A stretch of DNA of 64,000 nt from the NCBI RefSeq assembly GCF_027744825.2, contig NW_026527058.1:558001-622000 (forward strand), read 5' to 3'. The position numbers were made by a program, and so were the translations under genes. Origin of the DNA: Synchiropus splendidus. Lineage: Eukaryota; Chordata; Actinopteri; Syngnathiformes; Callionymidae. Below are positions 48,533 to 64,000 of the stretch, piece by piece. Positions within the stretch are counted from its first letter, which is position 1, and each line of letters opens with the position of its first letter. The notes beneath the pieces are model-generated. The model did no database searches and was not told where the DNA came from. It saw nothing but the letters and a program-made list of their open reading frames with translations.

Positions 48533-49532
48533 TTGGGTTCGCCAGGGTTAACAATCAGTCACTTCCCCCCTGATGTCCAATTGACTCTTCAGAACGCTAA
48601 AGCTCAGTCAACCCTCAGAGCATACAATGCTAAATGGACATTCTTTTCCCGGTGGTGTGGAAACCAGTCAGCCTCCCCAGAATCGGCACCTGTTCCTCTC
48701 ATCCTCTCTTTTCTCCAGCATCTGGTTAATGAAGCTTGGGGCAGCGCTACATTACGGGTTTATGTAGCAGCGCTTTCCATGCTACACAATGGTCTGGACG
48801 GCCACCCCGTCTGCGAGCATCGTCTAGTGAGCCGTTTCATGAGAGGAGTGAAAAGGCTTAGACCAACCACAAGACCGTTATGTCAGTACTGGGACCTGCA
48901 GCTGGTACTCAATTCACTCTCTGAAGCCCCTTTTGAGCCACTTGATCAGGTCTCCCAGGAGCTAGAAGCGCTTTTTCGATCAGCCCTGATTGCATCTCTT
49001 TTGGTGACGATGACTCGGCGGTATCACTTAGACCCAACCCTGCCTTTGCACCTAAATGTCTCTCTTCTTCTTCAGTATAAACTTCTTGTCAGTAAAAACT
49101 TTCTGCTCTCCTACCCATTCAAAAGAGGTACATGAGCGTTTACACAAAATATGTCCGGTTAGAGCGCTAAAAGCTTAACTGGATCGAGTCCCACCCTTCA
49201 GAAAGACGGACAGTCTGTGGGTGTCTGTCGCAGGTGGTAAGAAGGGGCAGGCGCTGTCCCCTCACAGGTTGTCACATTGGCTTGGAATTGCCATCATGAA
49301 AGCCTATGAGACAGCAGGAAAACAGGCACCCGAATCCCTGAGAGCACACTCGACCAGAGGCCTGGAAACATCTGTTGCTGCTTCAAGGGTGTATCTCTGG
49401 CAGAAATCTGCCTGGCAGCGTTTTTGGTCATCAATCTCTACTTTTGCTGACCACTATTTGTCTAATGTGTCAGCATCCTCCTTCCCTCATGTCATTCTGT
49501 CTTCAGGAGCAGCCGAACCCTGCGACCAGTAG
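48533..49532 (+). pseudogene. DIRS-like tyrosine recombinase, copy B
   Basis: The longest recombinase fragment in the window. 48,533-49,135 holds the N-terminal core-binding part (STLRAYNAKWTFFSRWC, LILSFLQHLVNEAWG, TLRVYVAALSMLH, FMRGVKRLRPTTRPL) and runs to a TGA. The C-terminal catalytic part continues at 49,221-49,532 with LRAHSTRGLETS (His-x-x-Arg) and TFADHYLSNV (nucleophile Tyr). The first Arg box, seen in copy A as SAKRVGEL, is replaced here by unrelated residues (about 48,970-49,020), so the protein would be inactive even if read through. Confidence 0.85.
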
Positions 49533-51492: not shown

Positions 51493-54400
51493 ACAACATT
51501 TTTATGTTTGGCGTTCCGTAAACCACCTTTTCTGAAAACGCGTTTTCTGCATTGTGCCATAACTTCTCAGGGAAGCTTCAGAACATGATATTTTCAGCTC
51601 CCACTATAGCAGAAAGGGTCTTTGTAGTAGTTGCACATCAAATCTAAGCCGTCTGAAGTGTTTTTCAAAAGTTATCAACATTTTTATGTTTGGCGTTCCG
51701 AAACCCACCTTTTCTCAGGCTGAAAACGCGTTTGCTGCATTGTGCCATAACTTCTCAGGGAAGCACCAGAACACGATATGTTCACCTCCCACTATAGCAG
51801 AAAGGGTCTTTCTCGTAGTTGGACATCAAATCTAAGCTGTCTGAAGTGTTTTTCGAAAGAGATAAACATTTTTATTGTTTGGTATTCCGAAACCCACCTT
51901 ATCTCAGGCTGAAAACGCGTTTTCTGAGTTGTGCCATAACTTCTCAGGGAAGCTTCAGAACATGAAATTTTCACCCCCCACTATAGCAAAAAGGGTATTA
52001 TTACTAGTTGCACATAAAATCTATGCTGTCTGAAGTGTTTTTCCAAAGTTATCAGCATTTTTCTTTTTGGCGTTCCGAAACCCACTTCATCTCAGGCTGA
52101 AAACACCTTTTCTCCATTGTGACATAACTTCTCGGGGAAGCCACAGATCTTGAAATTTTCACCTCCCACTATAGCAGAAATGGACTTTCTAGTAGATGTA
52201 CATTAAATGCAAGCTGTCTGAAGTGTTTTTCCAAAGTTATCAACATTTTTATGTTTCGCGTTCCGAATTCCACCTTATCTCAGGCTGAAAACGCGCTTTC
52301 TGCATTGTACCACAACTTCTCAGGGAAGCTTCAGAACATGAAATTTTCACCTCCCACTATAGCAGAAAGGGTCTTTCTAGTAGTTGGACATCAAATCCAA
52401 GCTGTCTGAAGTGTTTTTCCAAAGTTATCAACATTTTTATGTTTGGCGTACCCGAAACCACCTTCTCTCAGGCTGAAAACGCCTTTACTGCAATGTGCCA
52501 AAACTTTGCAGGGAAGCTTCAGAACATGACATTTACAACTCCCACTATCGCAGAATGGGTCTTTCTTGTAGTTGCACATCAAATCTAAGCTGTCTGAAGT
52601 GTTTTTCGAAAGGTATCAACATTTTTATGTTTGGCGTTCCGGAACCCACCTAATCTCAGGCTGAAAACGCGTTTTCCGCATTTTGCCATAACTTCTCAGG
52701 GAAGCTACAGAACACGAAATGTTCACCTCCCACTATAGCAGAAAGGGTCTTTCTCGTAGGTGCACATCAAATCTAAGCTGTCTGAACTGTTTTTCGAAAG
52801 AGATAAACATTTTTATTGTTTGGTATTCCGAAACCCACCTTATCTCAGGCTGAAAACGCGTTTTCTGAGTTGTGCCATAACTTCTCAGGGAAGCTTCAGA
52901 ACATGAAATTTTCACCCCCCACTATAGCAGAAAGGGTATTATTACTAGTTGCACATCAAATCTATGCTGTCTGAAGTGTTTTTCCAAAGTTATCAACATT
53001 TTTATGTTTGGCGTACCCGAACCCACCTTCTCTCAGGCTGAAAACGCCTTTACTGCAATGTGCCAAAACTTTGCAGGGAAGCTTCAGAACATGAAATTTA
53101 CAACTCCCACTATAGCAGAATGGGTCTTTCTTGTAGTTGCACATCAAATCTAAGCTGTCTGAAGTGTTTTTCGAAAGGTATCAACATTTTTATGTTTGGC
53201 GTTCCGGAACCCACCTAATCTCAGGCTGAAAACGTGTTTTCCGCATTGTGCCATAACTTTGCAGGGAAGCTTCAGAACAAGAAATGTTCACCTCCAAATA
53301 TAGCAGAAAGGGTCTTTCTAGTAGTTGCACATGAAAATCTAAGCTGTCTGAAGTGTTTTTCCAAAGCTATCAACATTTTTATGTTTGGCATTCCGGAACC
53401 CACCTTATCTCATGCTGAAAATGTGTTTTACGCATTGTCCCATAACTTTGCATCAAGCTTCAGAACAAGAAATTTTCATTGCCACTATAGCAGAAACGGT
53501 CTTTCTAGTAGTTGCACTTCAAATCTAATCTGTCTGAAAGGTTTTCCGAAAGTTATCAACATTTTTATGTTTGGCGTTCCGGAACCCACCTTTTCTCAGG
53601 CTGAAAACGCGTTTATTTCTTTGTGCCAGAACTTTGCAGGGAAGATTCAGAACATGAAATTTTCACTTCCGACTATTGCAGAAAGGGTCTTTCTAGTAGT
53701 TGCATATCAAATCTAAGCTGTCTGAAGTGTTTTTCCAGTGCTATCAACATTTTTTTGTTTGGCGTTCCGGAACCCACCTTATCTCAGGGTGAAAACGCGT
53801 TTTCTGCGTTGTGCCATAACTTTGCAGGGAAGCTTCAGAACATGAAATTTTCACATCCCACTATCGCAGAAAGGGTATTTCTAGTAGTTGCACATCAAAT
53901 CTAAGCTATCTGAAGTGTTTTTCCAAAGGTAACAACTTTTTTATGTTTGGCGTTCCGGAATCGACCTAATCTCAGGCTGAAAACGCGTTTTACGTATTGT
54001 GCCATAACTTTGCTGGGAAGCTTCAGAACATGAAATTTTCACCTGCCACTATAGCAGAAAGGGTCTTTCGAGTAGTTTCACATCAAATCTAAGCTGTCTG
54101 AAGTGTTTTTCCAATGTTATCAACATTTTTATGTTTGGCGTTCCGGAATCGACCTTATCTCGGGCTGAAAACGCGTTTTCTGCATTGTGCCATAACTTTG
54201 CATGGATGCTTCCGAACATGAAATTTTGGCCTCCTACTATAGCAGAAAGGGTCTTTTTAGTAGATGCACATCAAATCTAAGCTGTCTGAAGTGTTTTTCC
54301 AAAGTCATCAACATTTTTATGTTTGGCATTCCGGAATCGACCTTATCTCAGGCTGAAAACGCGTTTTCTGCATTGTGCCATAACTTTGCATGGATGCTTC

Positions 54401-57111
54401 CGAACATGAAATTTTCATGTCCCACTATCGCAGAAAGGGTCTTTCTAGTAGTTGCACATCAAATCTAAGCTGTCTGAAGTGTTTTTCCAAAGTTATCAAC
54501 ATTTTTATGTTTGGCATTCCGGAATCGACCTTATCTCAGGCTGAAAACGCGTTTTCTGCATTGTGCCATAACTTTGCAGGGAAGCTTCAGAACATGAAAT
54601 TTTCACCTCCCACTATAGCAGAAAGGGTCTTTCGAGTAGTTGCACATCAAATCTATGCGGTCTGAAGTGTTTTTCAAAAGTTATCAACATTTTTATGTTT
54701 GCCGTTCCGGAATCGACCTTATCTCAGGCTGAAAACGCGTTTTCTGCTTTTTGGCATAACTATGCAGGGAAGTCTCAGAATATGAAGTTTTCACATCCCA
54801 CTATAGCAAAAAGGGTCTTTCTAGTACTTGCACATCAAATCTAAGCTGTCTGAAATGTTTTTCCAAAGTTATCAACATTTTTATGTTTGGCGTTCCAGAA
54901 TCGACCTTATCTCAGGCTGAATACGCGATTTCTTCATTGTGCCATAACTTTGCAGGGAATTTTGAGAACATGAAATTTTCACATCCCACTATAGCAGAAA
55001 GGGTCTTTCTTGTAGTTGCACATCTAATCTAAGCTGTCTGAAGTGTTTTTACAAAGTACTCAACATTTTTATGTTTGACGTTCTGGCACCCACCTTATCT
55101 CAGGCTGAAAACGCATTTTCTGCATTGTGCCATCACTTTGCAGGAAAGCCGCAGAATATGAAATTTTCAACTCCCACTAAAGCAGAAAGGGTCTTTCTCC
55201 TACTTGCACATCAAATCTATGCTGTCTGAAGTGTTTTTCAAAAGTTTTCAACATTTTTATATTTGGCGTTCCTGAATCGACCTTATCTCAGGCTGAAAAC
55301 GCAGTTTCTGCATTGTGCCATAACTTTGCAGGGAAACTTCAGAACATGAAATTTTCACCTCCCACTATAGCGGAAAGGTTCCTTCTAGTAGTTGCTCATC
55401 AAATCTAACCTTTCTGAAGTGTTTTTCCAAAGTTATCAACATTCCTATGTTTGGCGTTCTGGAATCAACCTTATCTCTGGCTGAAAACGCGTTTTCTGCA
55501 TTGTGATATAACTTTGCACTGAAACTTCAGAACATGAAATTTTCACATCCCACTATAGCAGAAAGGGTCTTTCTAGTAGTTGCACATCAAATCTAAGCTG
55601 TCTGAAGTGTTTTTCCAAAGTTATCAACATTTTTTTCTTTGGCGTTCCAGAATCGACCTTATCCCAGGCTGAAAACGCGTTTTACGCATGGTGCCATAAC
55701 TTCGCAGGGAAGATTCAGAACATCGAATTTTCACCTCCCACATTAGCAGAAAGGGTCTTTCTAGTAGTTGCAGATCAAATCTAAGCTGTCTGAAATGTTT
55801 TTACAAAGTTATCAACATTTTTATGTTTGGAGTTCCGGAACCCACCTTATCTCAGTCTGAAAATGTGTTTTACGCATGCTGCCATAACTTTGCAGGGACG
55901 CTTCAGAACATGAAGTTTTCACCTCCCACTATAGCAGAAAGGGTTTTTCTCGTAGTTGCACGTCAAATCTAAGCTGTCTGATGTGTTTTTCCGAAGTTAT
56001 CAACATTTTTATGTTTGGCGTTCTGGAACCCACATTATCTCAGTCTGAAAACGCATTTTCTGCATTTTGCCATAACTTTGCAGGGATACATCAGAACATG
56101 AAATTTTCACCACCCACAATACCACAAAGGGTCTTTCTAGTAGTTGCAGATCAAATCGAAGCTGTCTGAAGTGTTTTTCCAAAGTTATCAACATTTTTAT
56201 GTTTGGCGTTCCGGAATCGACGTTATCTCAAGCTGAAAACACGTTTTACGTATTGTGCCATAACTTTGCAGGGAAGCTTCAGAACATCGAATTTTCACCA
56301 CCCACTGTAGCAGAAAGGGTCTTTCAAGTAATTGCTCATCAAAGCTAAGCTCTCTGAAGTGTTTTTCCAAACTTATCAACATTTTTATGTTTGGCGTCCG
56401 GAACCCTCCTTATCTCAGGCTGAAAACCCGTTTTCTGCATTCTGCCCTAACATTGCAGGGACGCTTCAGAACATGAAACTTTCACCTCCCGCTATACAAG
56501 AAAGGATCTTTCTAGTAGTTGCACATCATATTTAAGCTGTCTGAAGTTTTTTTCCAAAGTTATCAACATTTCTATGTTTGGCGTTCCGGAATCGACCTTA
56601 TCTCAGGCTGAAAACGCGTTTTCTGCATTGTGACATAACTTTGCAGGGAAGCTTCAGAACAATAAAATTTCACCTCCCACAATAGCAGAAAGATTCTTTC
56701 TAGTAGTTGCACATCAAATCAAATCTGTCTGAAGTGTTTTTCCAAAGTTATCAACTTTTTTATGTTTGGCGTTCCGGAATCGACCTTATCTCAGGCTGAA
56801 AACGCGTTTTCGGAATTGTGCCATAACTTTGCAGGGAAGCGTCAGAACATGAAATTTTAACCTCCCAGTATAGCAGAAAGGGTTTTCCTCGTAGTTGCAC
56901 GTCAAATCTAAGCTGTCTGATGTGTTTTTCCGAAGTTATCAACATTTTTATGTTTGGCGTTCTGGAACCCACATTATCTCAGTCTGAAAACGCTTTTTCT
57001 GCATTTTGCCATAACTTTGCAGGGATACATCAGAACATGAAATTTTCACCTCCCACAACAGCATAAAGGGTCTTTCTAGTAGTTGCAGATCAAATCAAAG
57101 CTGTCTGAAGT
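51493..57111. repeat. 188-bp satellite, array 2 (about 30 monomers)
   Basis: Same monomer, same orientation as array 1. It starts in mid-monomer at CACAACATTTTTATG and ends at GCTGTCTGAAGT, where the retroviral LTR begins. The first third has a local subfamily with CATAACTTCTCAGGGAAG and AGATAAACATTTTTATTG; 51,740-51,985 recurs at 52,681-52,926 (offset 941). Around 54,190-54,660 are monomers with TGGATGCTTCCGAAC and CATGTCCCACTATCGC that match units at 27,880-32,100 of array 1. 55,930-56,115 recurs at 56,870-57,055 (offset 940, five monomers). Confidence 0.96.
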
Positions 57112-57569
57112 CTGAACCCATGTTGTATATACTGGAAAATTGAAAATATTATAACCATGCTTTGCACTTATTATGACCACTTATTGAACCTGTATGCTTT
57201 GCACTTTTGAACTTACAAGCAGGGCATGCTCTAACCTCAGGGTGAATTTGTAAGCAGAACATGTTTTTAAGCGGAGCTTGCGATTATGGTTAACACTTAG
57301 AAGGAACGTTGTATTAATAGAACATTGTGGTCTTCACTTAGAACATAAGTCACATTTATCAAAACAATGAAACTAACACTCAGCATGTTCAATGAATCTA
57401 AAACATCTGCATAAGACATAAGGGGTGTCTGTAATGAAGTTAAAACTTTCCACTAAGGACGACAGCTAGAACACGTGATGAAAATTAAAACTTTCCACTG
57501 AAGATGACAAGAACACGTCACCCATTAATGACGCATTGGGGGATTGTTTATTGAAATCGGCAATGTTGC

Positions 57570-57576
57570 TATAAAG
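57570..57576 (+). promoter_or_regulatory. LTR TATA box
   Basis: TATAAAG, about 450 bp into the LTR. Transcription would start about 25-30 bp downstream, near the CT-rich CTCTCGCTCTCGCTC. Confidence 0.65.
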
Positions 57577-58108
57577 GTCTAGGATAAACTGACCTCTCGC
57601 TCTCGCTCTTGATCCACGCTTTTGGCTTCATCCGTTTGCTGAAAGGTCTTGTATCTTAACTTGGGACGGTGCTCTTGCTCTTGCTCTTAGGCCATTTGAT
57701 TTAACTCTTTTTGTTGTTCTCTTATGGTTTTTTATTATTGATTGGTTGATTTTTATGATTAATTCTTTTCACTTAATCTCTTTTATTGCATATACTTTGA
57801 ATATATTTTTTAGGATCTTTGACTTAATCCTTTTTATTGTGTATGCATTTTGATTATATGATTTTTGACATTTATGTATGTGCACTAGCGTCTGGCAGTG
57901 CCTTTGACTTTGTTGGGTATTAGCGTCTGGCAATACCCTTGAGTTTATTGATGTTTATTGATTTTATTGTTTTTATTATCCTTTTTTGAATTTTATTGTT
58001 TTATTACCCTTTTATCATTTTTGTATTGAATTTTATTCTTTATTGATTTTACTGTTTTGTTATCCTTTTTATCAATTTTTTGGAGAAATACTTTTGACAT
58101 AAAAACAA

Positions 58109-58114
58109 AATAAA
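58109..58114 (+). terminator. LTR polyadenylation signal
   Basis: AATAAA in the second half of the LTR. Cleavage would be expected 10-30 bp downstream, setting the R/U5 border near 58,130. Confidence 0.6.
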
Positions 58115-58562
58115 ACTGAGTACGAATTAAGTACTGAAAAGGCACAACGGCATTGATCCCTGACTACTAAAGAATCGACTGGCTCCTGTACTACCATCAA
58201 CTGGGTTATAGGTGAGTTAATGCTGGATTGAATTAATGTTTGATTCCCTTTCCTGTGCACATGTAGTGAATGTCTCGACTGGTAGCATTATTGTAAGGTC
58301 AAGAACCTGTTTCTCAACAGGTCGGGTGAATTAAATAACCCGCTCAGTGAAGCGCCGACACTACTCACTAATATAATAGGTGAAGTTGATACATCTATTA
58401 TAGTTTTAGAACCGTGTCTGCAACAAGAGGCTGACTGAGTTGACCACACGAGGGGGCCCTTTACCAGAGAGGCAAAGGGAGGTAGTGTACTCGGAACTAG
58501 GGACGGCTTGTTACAGCCAATTGCCCTGTACACAAAACCTTGAAATCCAAAACCCGGCGACA

Positions 58563-58580
58563 TGGCGCCCGAACAGGGAC
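58563..58580 (+). promoter_or_regulatory. Primer-binding site for tRNA-Lys3
   Basis: TGGCGCCCGAACAGGGAC, 18 bases complementary to the 3' end of tRNA-Lys (UUU anticodon type), directly after the LTR terminal CA. Minus-strand DNA synthesis would start here. Lentiviruses and some other retroviruses use the same primer; this alone does not make the element a lentivirus. Confidence 0.92.
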
Positions 58581-59012: not shown

Positions 59013-60472
59013 ATGAGCAAAGAGGTTGTGCCTGAAAGCAGTGGAGTCTCTAAGAGAAGAGCCTCCATAGCCGAATCTGAGGTTTTGACTACCCCCCTGA
59101 TATGTGGGTTGTAGCATCTTTTCTGATAATCGATGCACGATTAGAAAATCAGGAATTATGGGATATTTTGCCTTTCGGTTCGTATACGCTCCTTAATCCA
59201 CGGAGGTGCCCAAGACCTACCGATAGTGCGGGTATAGCTTGTTGGGTGAAAGAGAGTTTTCCTGAAGCGGTGAAAGACTTTGACCAGGATCACCCGGGGG
59301 ACTGGGCCCCAGGTGAGGCGCGTCCCTTGGACACCGGGGACTCGAGATTGCATACAATATTAATGGCTCATTACTTGCCCTTTGACGACAAGGACCCTGA
59401 GGGTTCCTTTAAGATACTTTCGACAACTTATCACAACTCCTTGACTCATGCCGGAACGTGGGCCGTCATTGTTCCCATTTTTGGGACAGGAGTGTTCAAT
59501 TTCCCTCTCGGAAGGGCAGTGGAAATTTGTATTGATCACACTCGGGAATGGGTAAACCGTGACCCCGATTTTAACCGAATAGTAGTCCTCCTGGCTCCTG
59601 AGGCTGGGCTGCGGCAGGAAATACTCTGCCAATTAAAAGGGCGATTTAAAGCGGATCCAGTGAAAGTTCAGGACTATGCAGCGTCCAGTAATTATCGGGT
59701 TGATGCGACATTAATTGCTGAACTAATGAGGATGCCCGTAGTGGGCAAGTCATATAAGGAGTTTGTCTTTGACCGTGCCGTAGGGAATATTACTGACAGC
59801 TTTGTTCGTCAATACCAGCGCTACCCCGCTAAATCGGGAATGTATCCACACGCTGATCTTAAAGAACACCAAACGTTATACGGACCAACTGGTCCATCAC
59901 CACTGACAAATATGGGGTCATTGGACACTGCATTACAAGAAATAGCCCATACTCCGACTGCAACTGCGCCACCCGCCTATGAAACTAGCGAGACTCTCAG
60001 GGACCATGGCTATGCCACTCCAGTGAGGGTCCACTTCTCCCCGCCGTCAGAGGATGACTCTGATGAGGGAGAACCCCTGCACGTGAGTGAAAACAGCAGA
60101 GAAATTTTTACTAGTCTGGAAAAAATGGCGGGACAACTTAGTGCGATCTCACAACAAATATAAAGTCATCGGGATCAGATCAATAGAAGTTTAAGCCAGG
60201 GAAGATTAGAATATATTTCAGGTTCCCCGGAAAATCGGCCACAGCCCATGCAACCACTTAATCCCTCTAATGGCTTGATAGAGGCCTCGGGCCTTAATGC
60301 CCCAGGAAACTCTGATGCCAGAGACCCAGGGTTGAGTGAGTCAACTCCGGATGACATCCCGGTTATTAGAATGGACAATGGATCCATGTTTATTATTTTG
60401 CCCACTTCTACGGCTAAATATAAACCCACTGGGGACAATGTAGTGATCCCCTTAAGAAAGGGGACTAGATGA
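59013..60472 (+). pseudogene. Retroviral 5' gag-region or accessory frame with macrodomain-like fold, broken
   Basis: The first ATG (59,013) opens 33 codons, then stops at 59,112-59,114. The long frame is shifted and open from 59,081 (first ATG 59,102) for 353 codons to TAA at 60,161-60,163, then continues in the same frame to TGA at 60,470-60,472. Counting from Met 59,102, residues about 1-175 resemble a macrodomain: SAGIACWV (42-49, loop-1-like), GEARPLDTG (71-79), strand TILMAHYLP (85-93), LSTTYHNSLTHA (106-117), VPIFGTGVFNFP (124-135, diphosphate-loop-like) and strand RIVVLLAP (159-166). The classical NAAN is not present; LLNP (30-33) is the nearest. Residues 290-330 are acidic and Pro-rich, and 333-353 have coiled-coil-like spacing that continues past the TAA. 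The function would be ADP-ribose binding or removal if the fold is right; no family is assigned with certainty. Confidence 0.6.
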
Positions 60473-62706
60473 GGTGAGGGCATTTATTCCGTGGAAAAAG
60501 AAGATTGGCAGAAAGGACCTCGATTATCAACTTTATCTTTTGAGTGAAGAAGTTCGTGACCGGAGTTACCGAGCCTTTGAGCGGGTCCATCACCTTGACT
60601 TCACTGATTGCGAAGATTCCTCCGTGGCCACTGTCTGTTTGACACCGTTAGTGCATTCGCGCTCAGTAGAAGGCCAAATACACACCGGAGCCAGCAAAAT
60701 TGCCCGGCTTGAATTGTCTAAGGTGACCCTTGACCTCAATCCTCCTGAATCATTGGGGGTTGTCACAAATACACAATTAGCACGATGGATGACAGCTACT
60801 TATGCGACACTGGCCTCACTGGGTTATTTTGAAACAGTTAAGTGTCTGGTAGGAAACCGACAACTGGCAAAAACACTCTATGACACAGTATTACTTTTAA
60901 AACAGGATAACTTTGCAAAGTATCTAGATAATTCTCCTCAGCTGCAGCATGGCTTAGAGGAGGAGGAGCGCAGAGAGCCAGAGGAGCCTCGGGTTTCCTT
61001 CCGACCCTCCTCTGCGTCTACACCACGCCACCCAACTTCTCTACCCAGGTCCCCACGTGACGAACGGCCCTCCTCTGTGTCTGCACCACGCCCCTCAACC
61101 CCTCTACCCAGGTCCCCACAGGGCGAACGACCATCAACGCCCCCTATTAACCGCCAGCCCACCAGAATGGTTCGAGCAAAAGACTCTAGAGGGCGTAAGA
61201 TAACCTGGGGAGAGTACGACGCCACCAAGTGGCCGTGCGACCCCGGCAAGGAAGAATTAAGAGAACACCCTATGGCTCATGACTATGATCCGCTGGTACA
61301 CCAGCAGCCTCCAGAGCCAGGGTGGAATAAAGAAATAATTACACCCCAGTGGTTTCCTCATGATAGGAAGGAAAGGGCCCGGAGAATGCGATCTCCCTCT
61401 GCTGAGGAAATAGGTGAGTGGCAAGGAGTGTCAAAATCTTTTAAGCGGGCGTATCTTGCACGAGGGTATGATGCACACCGTGATTCATTAACTGATATTT
61501 ACTCTCATATGCCCAGGGCCACTCGCCAGCCGATGGAGCCCTGGGAGGGACAGTCTCAATGTCCCTCTGAACCTGACGATCAGAGTAGCGATGAATCCGG
61601 CAGCGATAGTGACTCGCCTCTGGGTCCGCAGCCAGATCCCCCAACTCCCCCAAGACAGGGTGGCAGGATGGCCCCCGCAGGTAGGATAGGACGGCAGCGC
61701 ACCCAGCTGGCAGTGTCGATTCTTGCAGGAGGCCCCCTATCGGAGCCCAGGCAAGACAGTGACGTCAGGGTGTCGAATAAAATTACCCTGGCAGACCTAT
61801 GCAAAGCATTCCCAAAAAGAAGAGATAAAGAATCCAACTGTGAGTATGTCAGGAGATTGAATAAGGAGTTATCTCCTGCTCAAATGACTGACCCGTTTAT
61901 TAGTAAATATGTCTCCAGAGAGAATGGATTAGATTTAGTCCAAGGGCAGACATTAATGGATTTGTTAACCTCTGATGTGGCTATTTTACTCACTAGTCAG
62001 GTAGAAGCAACCATACGAGATCTGGTTGATAAAGTAAAAAGAGGAGAAATGTCTCTTTTACAGGCTTATTCTATTCTGGCAGAAGAGGGGGCTGATGAGT
62101 CACAGGTTAAGAGTTTTCTGATTCAGATGAACTGCCCCGAGCAAGCAAAATTAGTTCTGGAGTTCCTCCAAGCGAAGGGACTCGATGCAAAAACTGAGGT
62201 TATCACACGTCACAGCTCCCTCATGGGTGTGAGAAGAGCTCTTAGAAAGCAAAAAGAGAAACAGGATGTATCTGAACCTCGACAGCCAAAAAACGAGCAG
62301 AGGGGGAAGCCCCTTCCCCCTACCGAATCGAAACCAGCAAACCCACAGCGCGCCCCGCCTCGCACTCAATCTTCCTTTCCACCCAGAAAGGATCGAAACC
62401 AGCAAGACATCAGACCCGAGAGACAGGGTGGTGGCAAGCGCCCTCCATTCAACAAGAATATGAATGGCTCAGGCATGAATACCCACAGGCAGCCTCGCTG
62501 GAGGCAGAATCATCAATCGACCCCAAACAAAGGGGCAAGATCGCCCCCGTCCGAAACCAGTGTCCGACGAGGACTGGAAAACGATGACCCAAGAGCAAAA
62601 AGAAGCGGTAATACTTGCAGCAGCGCGGCGAAATCAGGATCAGGGAAGGCAACTGACCGCAGCCCAGAGGAAAGTGTTAGAGAAACACGAACCCAAAACC
62701 CAATAA
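60456..62706 (+). CDS. gag: Retroviral Gag-like region without Cys-His box
   Basis: Open in one frame from 60,456 with no stop to the end of the window; its first ATG is at 60,789. In order: a folded-looking part (to about 60,940); a Pro/Ser/Arg-rich part with two 63-nt tandem units (61,005-61,130) coding for PSSxSxPRxPxxLPRSP; an acidic SSDESGSDSDS patch (about 61,580-61,615); a helical, capsid-like part (about 61,780-62,215); then a basic Gln/Arg/Gly-rich tail (about 62,220-62,520) with no CCHC zinc knuckle. From about 62,521 a second frame reads more naturally (KPVSDEDWKTMTQEQK and on) and ends at TAA 62,704-62,706, overlapping the pol ATG by one base (TAATG). A frame break near 62,480-62,540 is therefore likely. 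The upstream join to the macrodomain-like frame at 60,456-60,472 needs a +1 shift or is another indel. Confidence 0.65.
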
Positions 62707-64000
62707 TGAGGCCTTATAAAGTGCAGATATGGGTTAAAGATCAAAAAAGAGATTGCTATTATGATACTGGAACAGATATATCCATATTACCGAGAGAATG
62801 GTTAGATGAAGAACTCGATCAGAAGATACTCGTAAAATTGGCTAATGGAGATGTCGTTATGATGGCCCTAGGTATATTTAATGGAAAAACTGTGGCAATA
62901 GGGCCTAACCCTTTATTGTCTCCGAATGATTCAGAATGGATTATTGATGCCCCTTCCTCAAATTGGATGAGAGAAGTTAACAGGATTACGGCCATAGAAA
63001 AATTAGTATGTGCCTCGCACATAAAAGACAAGGCACGCTTAGAAAAGATTCTCTATTCGGCCGAAGTGGCTCGATTTAAAAATGATGTAGGATTAATGAA
63101 AACAGAACCATATGTCATTAGGGGTGGTCTCCCCGGTAAACAAAAACAATACCCATTAGGAAAATATGAAGATCAATTGCTGGCAGTGTTTAAAGAATTA
63201 GAACAATTAGGGGTCATCGAAAAGATTAAAGAACCACCCTGCTTAATGCCAGTGCAGGCAGTACCAAAAAAGGACGGTACCGTTAGGCCTGTCCATAATC
63301 TGAAAATGTTAAATGACGTGACAGTGAAAGATACTAGACAAATAATTAATCCCCGACAAACCATGTTAAAAATACGCCCGGGAGAATATAACTCCAGTAT
63401 TGACCTCGCTAATGGATTCTGGTCAGTGCCACTGGCGGAAGAGAGCAGGCCAAAAACTTGTTTTATGATAAAAGGACAGGGCTACATGTGGACCAGGCTG
63501 CCCCAAGGATTTGTAAATTCCCCAAACGCATTTCAGGAAAGAATGGAGAAATTGTTGCATGACTTGCCAGTCACGTGCTATATAGACGATATATTTATCT
63601 CCACAGAGACAGAAGAAGAACATCTCGAGCTTTTAGAGGAAGTGATCCGGAGACTGAAGGATCATGGAATGAAGATTGGAATTGCTAAATGTGAGATAGG
63701 AGTACCGCAAGTTAAATATCTGGGTGTTTTGGTTACAAAGCACGCGATAACTTCCACTGACGAATATCTCCAAAATCTGCACCCTACTACGCTTAAAGAG
63801 CTAGAAAAATGCTTAGGAAAACTGGGGTGGCTGCGAAGTATGATTCCTTATTACTCTACTTTAGCGAGACCTGTTGAGATAATTAAAAATAAGGTCAGGT
63901 CATTCGACAAGCGGTCCCTAAAATTAATAGAGCACAATAGAATGCTAACGCCAGAAGAAACAGAAACCTGGAACTGTCTTATTCAACACATTCTTACAGA
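62706..64000 (+). CDS. pol: Retroviral protease and reverse transcriptase, intact, runs off the edge
   Basis: ATG at 62,706 in the frame that is already open from 60,456; no stop to 64,000 (432 codons seen). An aspartic protease comes first, with DTG at 62,763-62,771 in CYYDTGTDISIL; the protease part is short, about 90-100 residues. The reverse transcriptase follows: VQAVPKKDGTVRPV (about 63,256), SSIDLANGFWSVPL with the first catalytic Asp at 63,402-63,404, LPQGF at 63,498-63,512 and YIDD at 63,579-63,590, then a KYLGVL-type connection to the thumb. All catalytic residues visible are present. Pol starting at its own ATG overlapping the gag stop recalls foamy viruses, which express Pol separately, but a Gag-Pol fusion is also possible in the present sequence. 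Confidence 0.88.
   Translation, partial: MRPYKVQIWVKDQKRDCYYDTGTDISILPREWLDEELDQKILVKLANGDVVMMALGIFNGKTVAIGPNPLLSPNDSEWIIDAPSSNWMREVNRITAIEKLVCASHIKDKARLEKILYSAEVARFKNDVGLMKTEPYVIRGGLPGKQKQYPLGKYEDQLLAVFKELEQLGVIEKIKEPPCLMPVQAVPKKDGTVRPVHNLKMLNDVTVKDTRQIINPRQTMLKIRPGEYNSSIDLANGFWSVPLAEESRPKTCFMIKGQGYMWTRLPQGFVNSPNAFQERMEKLLHDLPVTCYIDDIFISTETEEEHLELLEEVIRRLKDHGMKIGIAKCEIGVPQVKYLGVLVTKHAITSTDEYLQNLHPTTLKELEKCLGKLGWLRSMIPYYSTLARPVEIIKNKVRSFDKRSLKLIEHNRMLTPEETETWNCLIQHILT

What the first reader, a model, noticed from the sequence alone, without database searches (positions are those of the whole stretch)
59102..59640. Macrodomain-like fold in an endogenous retrovirus, between leader and gag
The 353-codon frame has the ordered landmarks of a macrodomain: a loop SAGIACWV, GEARPLDTG, a strand ending in HYLP, an S-L helix LSTTYHNSLTHA, then VPIFGTGVFNFP followed by a helix and the strand RIVVLLAP. 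Macrodomains bind or remove ADP-ribose and serve several RNA viruses (coronaviruses, alphaviruses, hepatitis E virus) in countering host ADP-ribosylation. I know of none in a characterised retrovirus. Position 5' of gag recalls the extra 5' ORF (orfC) of walleye dermal sarcoma virus, so it may be an accessory gene captured by a fish retrovirus. The assignment is from motif order by eye, and the classical NAAN is absent.
Basis: partly seen in the sequence, partly recalled or inferred. Interest (0 to 1): 0.88.

Follow-up and report, generated by a model that had tools for sequence, protein, structure and literature searches.

The report
Macrodomain at a retrovirus Gag N-terminus
An endogenous retrovirus sitting in satellite DNA carries a diverged ADP-ribose-binding-type fold (a macrodomain) at its 5' coding end, probably as the first part of its Gag protein; similar genes have been reported in fish retroviruses before, so this is an unusual variant rather than a first.

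Summary

It lies in a provirus: a 1,450-bp LTR abutting 188-bp satellite, then a tRNA-Lys-type primer site. Its RT is nearest to foamy-virus enzymes among solved structures.

I read the ORF as the N-terminal part of Gag, not a separate accessory gene. After one stop its frame stays open up to the gag-pol frame, which has no ATG for 111 codons; it holds the only PPxY motif. The best viral fold match is a cane-toad ERV Gag. This rests on one broken copy.

The MacroD catalytic Asn and Asp are absent in my alignments, so hydrolysis is unlikely.

Not a first: a review credits Basta et al. 2009 with macro-domain ORFs in fish ERVs.

The parts
57113..58562 (+). 5' LTR, 1,450 bp, TG...CA; TATAAA at 57570, AATAAA at 58109
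   Evidence: Satellite similarity ends at 57111 against 5 of 5 reference copies; TRF independently ends the array at 57111; the primer site follows at 58563. I took the first TG after the satellite; other TGs follow within 30 bp. The 3' LTR is not in the window, so the ends are not checked against a second copy.
58563..58580 (+). Primer binding site, 18 nt, tRNA-Lys type
   Evidence: Found at 58563; the assignment to tRNA-Lys(3) is recalled
59014..59115 (+). Short upstream ATG frame (33 codons) overlapping the start of the macro ORF in another frame
   Evidence: Read by eye; significance unknown
59102..60163 (+). 353-codon ORF: macrodomain followed by a tail with a PPAY motif
59105..59656 (+). 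Macrodomain, about residues 2-185
   Evidence: Pfam 52-143; hhalign 53-187; structural matches span model residues 1-185
59483..59506 (+). Loop 2 GTGVFNFP (residues 128-135), counterpart of STGVYGYP
   Evidence: same register in 3 of 3 alignments
59969..59980 (+). PPAY, the only PPxY motif in the three frame pieces scanned
   Evidence: reading it as a late-budding motif is recalled
60164..60469 (+). Same frame, open for 102 more codons after the single stop at 60161
   Evidence: 14 of 5,000 shuffles are open
60456..63998 (+). gag-pol frame, open to the window end; no ATG before 60789; DTG at 62763, YIDD at 63579
62703..63125 (+). Retroviral protease region, weakly foamy-like
   Evidence: Pfam A9 E 0.033, below cut-off; only PDB hit at E<=1 is 2jys, Protease/Reverse transcriptase, E 0.089
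63126..63884 (+). Reverse transcriptase, foamy-like
   Evidence: RVT_1 4.3e-32; best PDB 7ksf 1.3e-38

Best explanation
The feature is the macrodomain of a class III (foamy-like) endogenous retrovirus and forms the N-terminal domain of its Gag polyprotein, in the place where orthoretroviruses have matrix: macrodomain, linker with a PPAY budding motif, then a capsid/nucleocapsid-like region fused in frame to protease and reverse transcriptase. Shown here: the fold-level relation, the LTR and primer site, the foamy-like RT, the frame layout. Inferred: that the two frames were one Gag, now broken by one stop and a change of frame. Inferred mechanism: because loop 2 is kept while the MacroD catalytic Asn and Asp are gone, the domain most likely binds rather than cleaves. 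It would have brought an ADP-ribose or nucleic-acid reader into the assembling or incoming particle, to shield viral RNA or Gag from host PARP-type restriction or to help select the genome. The copy in the window is not intact.
For: Macrodomain. Provirus: 5' LTR boundary, primer site, RVT_1. Foamy-like: best PR-RT chains are named Pr125Pol and Peptidase A9 (recalled as foamy-virus enzymes), 154.9 bits; RT alone 136 bits against Ty3 107.5 (7q5b), murine-leukaemia type 69, HIV-1 58. Gag: the macro frame stays open past its one stop to 60469 and overlaps the gag-pol frame, which opens at 60456 and has no ATG for 111 codons; PPAY at residue 290; best viral fold match is an 873-residue ERV Gag. Coding: per-codon score of the ORF frame 0.077, highest of its six frames, 500-shuffle maximum 0.011. 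Binding not cleaving: YmdB N25 falls on S27 and D35 on A46 in 3 of 3 alignments, while T123, G124 and P129 are kept.
Against: Pfam score below the curated cut-off; no profile matches the first 50 residues. The good model was built on a macrodomain alignment and leans that way; without it the fold failed. Residues 25-33 and 35-42, around the Asn loop, have pLDDT under 50, and one of three alignments shifts the middle part, so the register there is uncertain. No second copy or relative was found, so Gag fusion and selection cannot be tested. Two minus-strand frames of the ORF (0.031, 0.035) also exceed the codon shuffles, and in 60164-60469 a minus-strand frame (0.111) scores above the proposed one (0.107). 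The missing ATG was not tested against chance. No Pfam family in the gag pieces except a chance-level one; no MHR or CCHC pattern. A single continuous gag-pol frame is not how foamy viruses make Pol (recalled). BFVD does not say which part of the toad Gag was matched. No call bears on ADP-ribose or RNA binding.
Confidence: 0.6

Rival explanations
1. A separate accessory gene between leader and gag (orfC-like position), host-captured and translated on its own, with gag starting downstream.
For: The ORF has its own ATG and stop and a different frame from gag-pol; the 2016 review describes macro-domain ORFs as additional ORFs in fish ERVs.
Against: The gag-pol frame has no ATG for 111 codons; the same frame is open again for 102 codons after the stop (14 of 5,000 shuffles); the PPAY motif is in this ORF; the best viral fold match is a Gag.
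Confidence: 0.22
2. An active ADP-ribosylhydrolase, as in coronavirus or alphavirus macrodomains, reversing host PARP marks.
For: Best single-sequence matches include hydrolases; loop 2 is kept.
Against: Catalytic Asn and Asp positions read S27 and A46 in 3 of 3 alignments, and GDI reads A-R-L.
Confidence: 0.1
3. A purely structural use: the fold serves as a matrix-like Gag domain for membrane or protein contacts and binds no ADP-ribose.
For: Loss of most loop-1 and Asn-loop residues; N-terminal place in the frame chain.
Against: Loop 2 GTGVFNFP stays macrodomain-like, which suggests that a ligand was still bound.
Confidence: 0.3
4. Chance similarity of a retroviral matrix-like region.
For: Sub-threshold Pfam score; no homologues found; no profile match to the first 50 residues.
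Against: Three profile sources and the shuffle and window controls agree.
Confidence: 0.03

Closest known systems
Macro-domain ORFs of fish epsilon-like ERVs (Basta et al. 2009, J Virol 83:10152, as cited in PMC4977317)
   Same: Macrodomain coded inside an endogenous retrovirus
   Different: Those are described as epsilon-like and as additional ORFs; here the RT is foamy-like and the domain probably opens Gag. The 2009 paper was not held, so position and residues were not compared.
Gag of Rhinella marina (cane toad) endogenous retrovirus, A0A2U9K508, 873 aa, unclassified Retroviridae
   Same: Best viral fold match, E 1.7e-5, probability 1.00, TM 0.56 over the query, rmsd 4.7
   Different: 16% identity; the matched part of the toad Gag is not shown by the tool; its sequence was not at hand
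Foamy-like ERVs of ray-finned fish (FLERVs, PMC5512871, passages) and DrFV-1 of zebrafish (PMC2774666, passages)
   Same: Foamy-like Pol; the two reconstructed fish FLERVs have tRNA-Lys primer sites
   Different: The passages read report no known domains in the extra genes and mention no macrodomain; gag and pol are separate ORFs in the reconstructed FLERVs
MacroD-type ADP-ribosylhydrolases (YmdB, MACROD1) and PARP14 macrodomain 1
   Different: About 17-23% identity in those structural alignments; NAAN Asn and GVD Asp missing

Membership tests
Macro domain (PF01661) | Profile match above the curated cut-off | tested here: inconclusive
   19.6 bits against 22, E 9.1e-4; own profile 23.5 bits, E 7e-7
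Macro domain (PF01661) | Macrodomain fold | tested here: met
MacroD-type hydrolase | Catalytic Asn (NAAN) and Asp (GGGVD) | tested here: not met
   S27 and A46 in 3 of 3 alignments; low model confidence at residues 25-33 and 35-42
MacroD-type hydrolase | Removes ADP-ribose from proteins | not testable with these tools
   needs an assay
Foamy-like (class III) retroviruses | RT closest to foamy viruses | tested here: met
   only against RTs in the PDB, virus names partly recalled, no tree
Foamy-like (class III) retroviruses | No CCHC zinc knuckle in Gag | tested here: met
   pattern absent from the three frame pieces scanned
Foamy viruses proper | pol in its own frame with its own start (recalled) | tested here: not met
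   one open frame runs from 60456 through gag-like region, protease and RT
Epsilonretroviruses (WDSV kind) | RT nearest to gamma/epsilon retroviruses | tested here: inconclusive
   murine-leukaemia type 69 bits against foamy 136; no epsilonretrovirus sequence was compared
Macro-domain fish ERVs (Basta 2009) | Sequence relation to those elements | not tested
   paper and sequences not held

The most novel reading that the evidence does not exclude
A foamy-like retroviral lineage whose Gag begins with a non-hydrolytic macrodomain in place of a matrix domain, giving the particle its own ADP-ribose or RNA reader; shared with at least one amphibian ERV Gag.
Probability: 0.5. Interest if true: 0.76.

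Novelty: new variant of a known kind. Interest (0 to 1): 0.55.

Why it matters
Macrodomains are known as antagonists of antiviral ADP-ribosylation in plus-strand RNA viruses. One built into Gag would put the same conflict inside a retroviral particle, and would be a case of an N-terminal Gag domain replaced by a captured cellular fold. It also suggests that ERV 5' ORFs annotated as 'gag' by position alone should be searched for such domains.

Tried and rejected
Rejected: chance match (controls); a gamma/epsilon-like RT (without an epsilonretrovirus in the comparison); hydrolase. Led nowhere: protein search of 5.8 billion sequences with the whole ORF (2,039 candidates, none at E<=1) and with the domain (58 candidates, none at E<=10); IMG/VR with the ORF and with a pol piece (none confirmed); phages by tblastn (one hit at E 4); structure from the single sequence (pLDDT 35.6); gag pieces against Pfam (one chance-level hit, E 0.37, in 3 pieces, none in the ORF tail) and a gag piece against PDB sequences (one hit, E 1.4); tRNA and Rfam scans of the window (nothing); other copies of the element in the window (no blastn match at E<=1e-3 apart from itself and an internal duplication; best other tblastn E 0.12). 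The host genome was never reached: 12 of 12 genome-search runs did not complete (10, 15, 23, 39, 45, 49, 55, 59, 70, 77, 88, 91). Ten paper searches: 'macrodomain' with 'foamy virus' gave one paper, a Chikungunya review judged by its title; the spelling 'macro domain' was not paired with 'foamy virus' itself; one review mentions macro-domain ORFs in fish ERVs. Listings were capped. The library lacks most subscription journals, so this is no proof of absence.

Full report
WHAT IS THERE. It is the only closed ORF of 300 codons or more in the window; the frame downstream of it is open at the window end. Upstream lies a 188-bp satellite (about 189 copies at 1-35523 and 30 at 51494-57111). Similarity to the satellite stops at 57111 against 5 of 5 reference copies and in TRF. 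The first TG after it is at 57113, and a CA at 58562 stands directly before an 18-nt primer binding site at 58563. That gives a 1,450-bp LTR with TATAAA at 57570 and AATAAA at 58109. The provirus is therefore most likely inserted in satellite DNA. No second LTR is in the window, so the LTRs cannot be compared or dated.

IS IT A MACRODOMAIN. Macro (PF01661) is the only Pfam-A family listed for the ORF at E<=10: E 9.1e-4, 19.6 bits against a curated cut-off of 22, residues 52-143 to profile 25-118 of 118. By sequence 10 of 11 PDB chains listed at E<=10 are macrodomain proteins, the first 8 among them (best 9w48, E 0.0067; MACROD1 and PARP14 follow; one is a nanobody). In NCBIfam 4 of 5 families at E<=10 are macrodomain enzymes (E 0.0019-0.038, all far below their cut-offs). 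hhalign to 16 YmdB-type proteins: probability 87.9, E 3.3e-6, residues 53-187. A profile from 108 diverse macrodomains (loci) gives 23.5 bits to this ORF, over about residues 95-164, and at most 5.1 to the other 373 stop-to-stop ORFs of 60 or more residues; 5,000 shuffles of the protein reach at most 4.2 bits. Together these make a chance match very unlikely, although no single curated threshold is passed and no profile matches the first 50 residues.

LIGAND SITE. In three alignments by different settings YmdB N25 falls on S27, D35 on A46 and the GDI on A12-R13-L14, while the second loop is kept as GTGVFNFP (T123, G124 and P129 conserved). One of the three shifts the middle part (T68, H80, P84) by a few residues; identity to YmdB is 31-32 of 160-167 aligned. 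Residues 25-33 and 35-42 are modelled at pLDDT under 50, so the Asn-loop register is tentative. The usual MacroD chemistry is therefore unlikely. Some macrodomains without it bind ADP-ribose or RNA (recalled), and this is the mode I think most likely here. No call tests it.

WHICH RETROVIRUS. The protease-RT piece matches chains named Pr125Pol and Peptidase A9/RT/RNase H best (154.9 bits over residues 9-395); I recall these as foamy-virus enzymes, and A9 is the spumavirus peptidase in Pfam's naming. RT alone scores 136 bits with them, 107.5 with Ty3 (7q5b), 91 with 8r0s ('Enzymatic polyprotein'), 69 with a chain recalled as murine-leukaemia type (8wus) and 58 with the best chain recalled as HIV-1. 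The protease region has one PDB hit at E<=1, 2jys ('Protease/Reverse transcriptase', recalled as simian foamy virus), at a weak E 0.089. The element is foamy-like among the references at hand; no epsilonretrovirus was in the comparison and no tree was built. The two reconstructed ray-finned fish foamy-like ERVs have tRNA-Lys primer sites and separate gag and pol ORFs (PMC5512871, passages). Here gag-like region, protease and RT share one open frame from 60456. The host was not identified.

ACCESSORY GENE OR GAG. The macro frame has a single stop between 59081 and 60469 and stays open for 102 codons after it; 14 of 5,000 shuffles of that stretch do so. It overlaps the gag-pol frame by 14 nt. 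That second frame has no ATG until 60789, 111 codons in, so as it stands it has no obvious start of its own; I did not test this against chance. The macro ORF carries the only PPxY motif (PPAY, residue 290), and no P[ST]AP was found in the three pieces scanned. PPxY is a Gag late motif (recalled). Codon preference weakly agrees: the ORF frame scores 0.077 per codon, highest of its six frames (500-shuffle maximum 0.011), but two minus-strand frames (0.031, 0.035) also exceed the shuffles; in the continuation the frame scores 0.107 and a minus-strand frame 0.111, so there the measure does not discriminate. With the toad Gag match, this favours one former Gag, now broken by a stop and a frame change. 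It remains an inference from one copy, and no Gag domain was recognised in the downstream part.

PRIOR ART. Naville and Volff 2016 (PMC4977317, passages read; [quoted passage not shown] 2009. That paper is not held; I saw its title in a reference list. So a macrodomain in a fish ERV is published. 'Macrodomain' with 'foamy virus' finds one paper in the library, a Chikungunya review by its title. In three papers on macrodomains or ADP-ribosylation, the passages found with the word stem 'retrovir' name no retroviral macrodomain (PMC7729036; PMC10221186; PMC4245714). What seems new is the combination: foamy-like Pol, the probable place at the start of Gag, and the lost catalytic residues.

VERDICT. 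Real macrodomain, real provirus; reinterpretation as an N-terminal Gag domain, probably binding rather than cleaving. New variant of a known kind, interest 0.55.

Noticed in passing
window 1-35523 and 51494-57111: Two large arrays of one 188-bp satellite (about 189 and 30 copies); the provirus starts where the second array ends, so it is probably an insertion in satellite DNA.
   Followed up: partly
window 48533-49135 (+): 200-codon ORF with weak, sub-threshold matches to Phage_int_SAM_1 (E 0.0057) and Retrotrans_gag (E 0.091); perhaps a remnant of a tyrosine-recombinase (DIRS-like) element between the satellite arrays.
   Followed up: partly
window 59014-59115 (+): A 33-codon ATG frame overlaps the start of the macro ORF in another frame; whether it is a leader peptide, a uORF or a remnant of a longer N-terminus is unknown (read).
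   Followed up: no
window 61002-61135 (+): A 71-bp imperfect tandem duplication (83% identity, 63-bp offset) in the proline-rich part of the gag-like region.
   Followed up: no
BFVD A0A2U9K508 (Rhinella marina ERV Gag): A named amphibian ERV Gag is the best viral fold match of the domain, so macrodomain-bearing Gag may be more widespread than annotated.
   Followed up: partly
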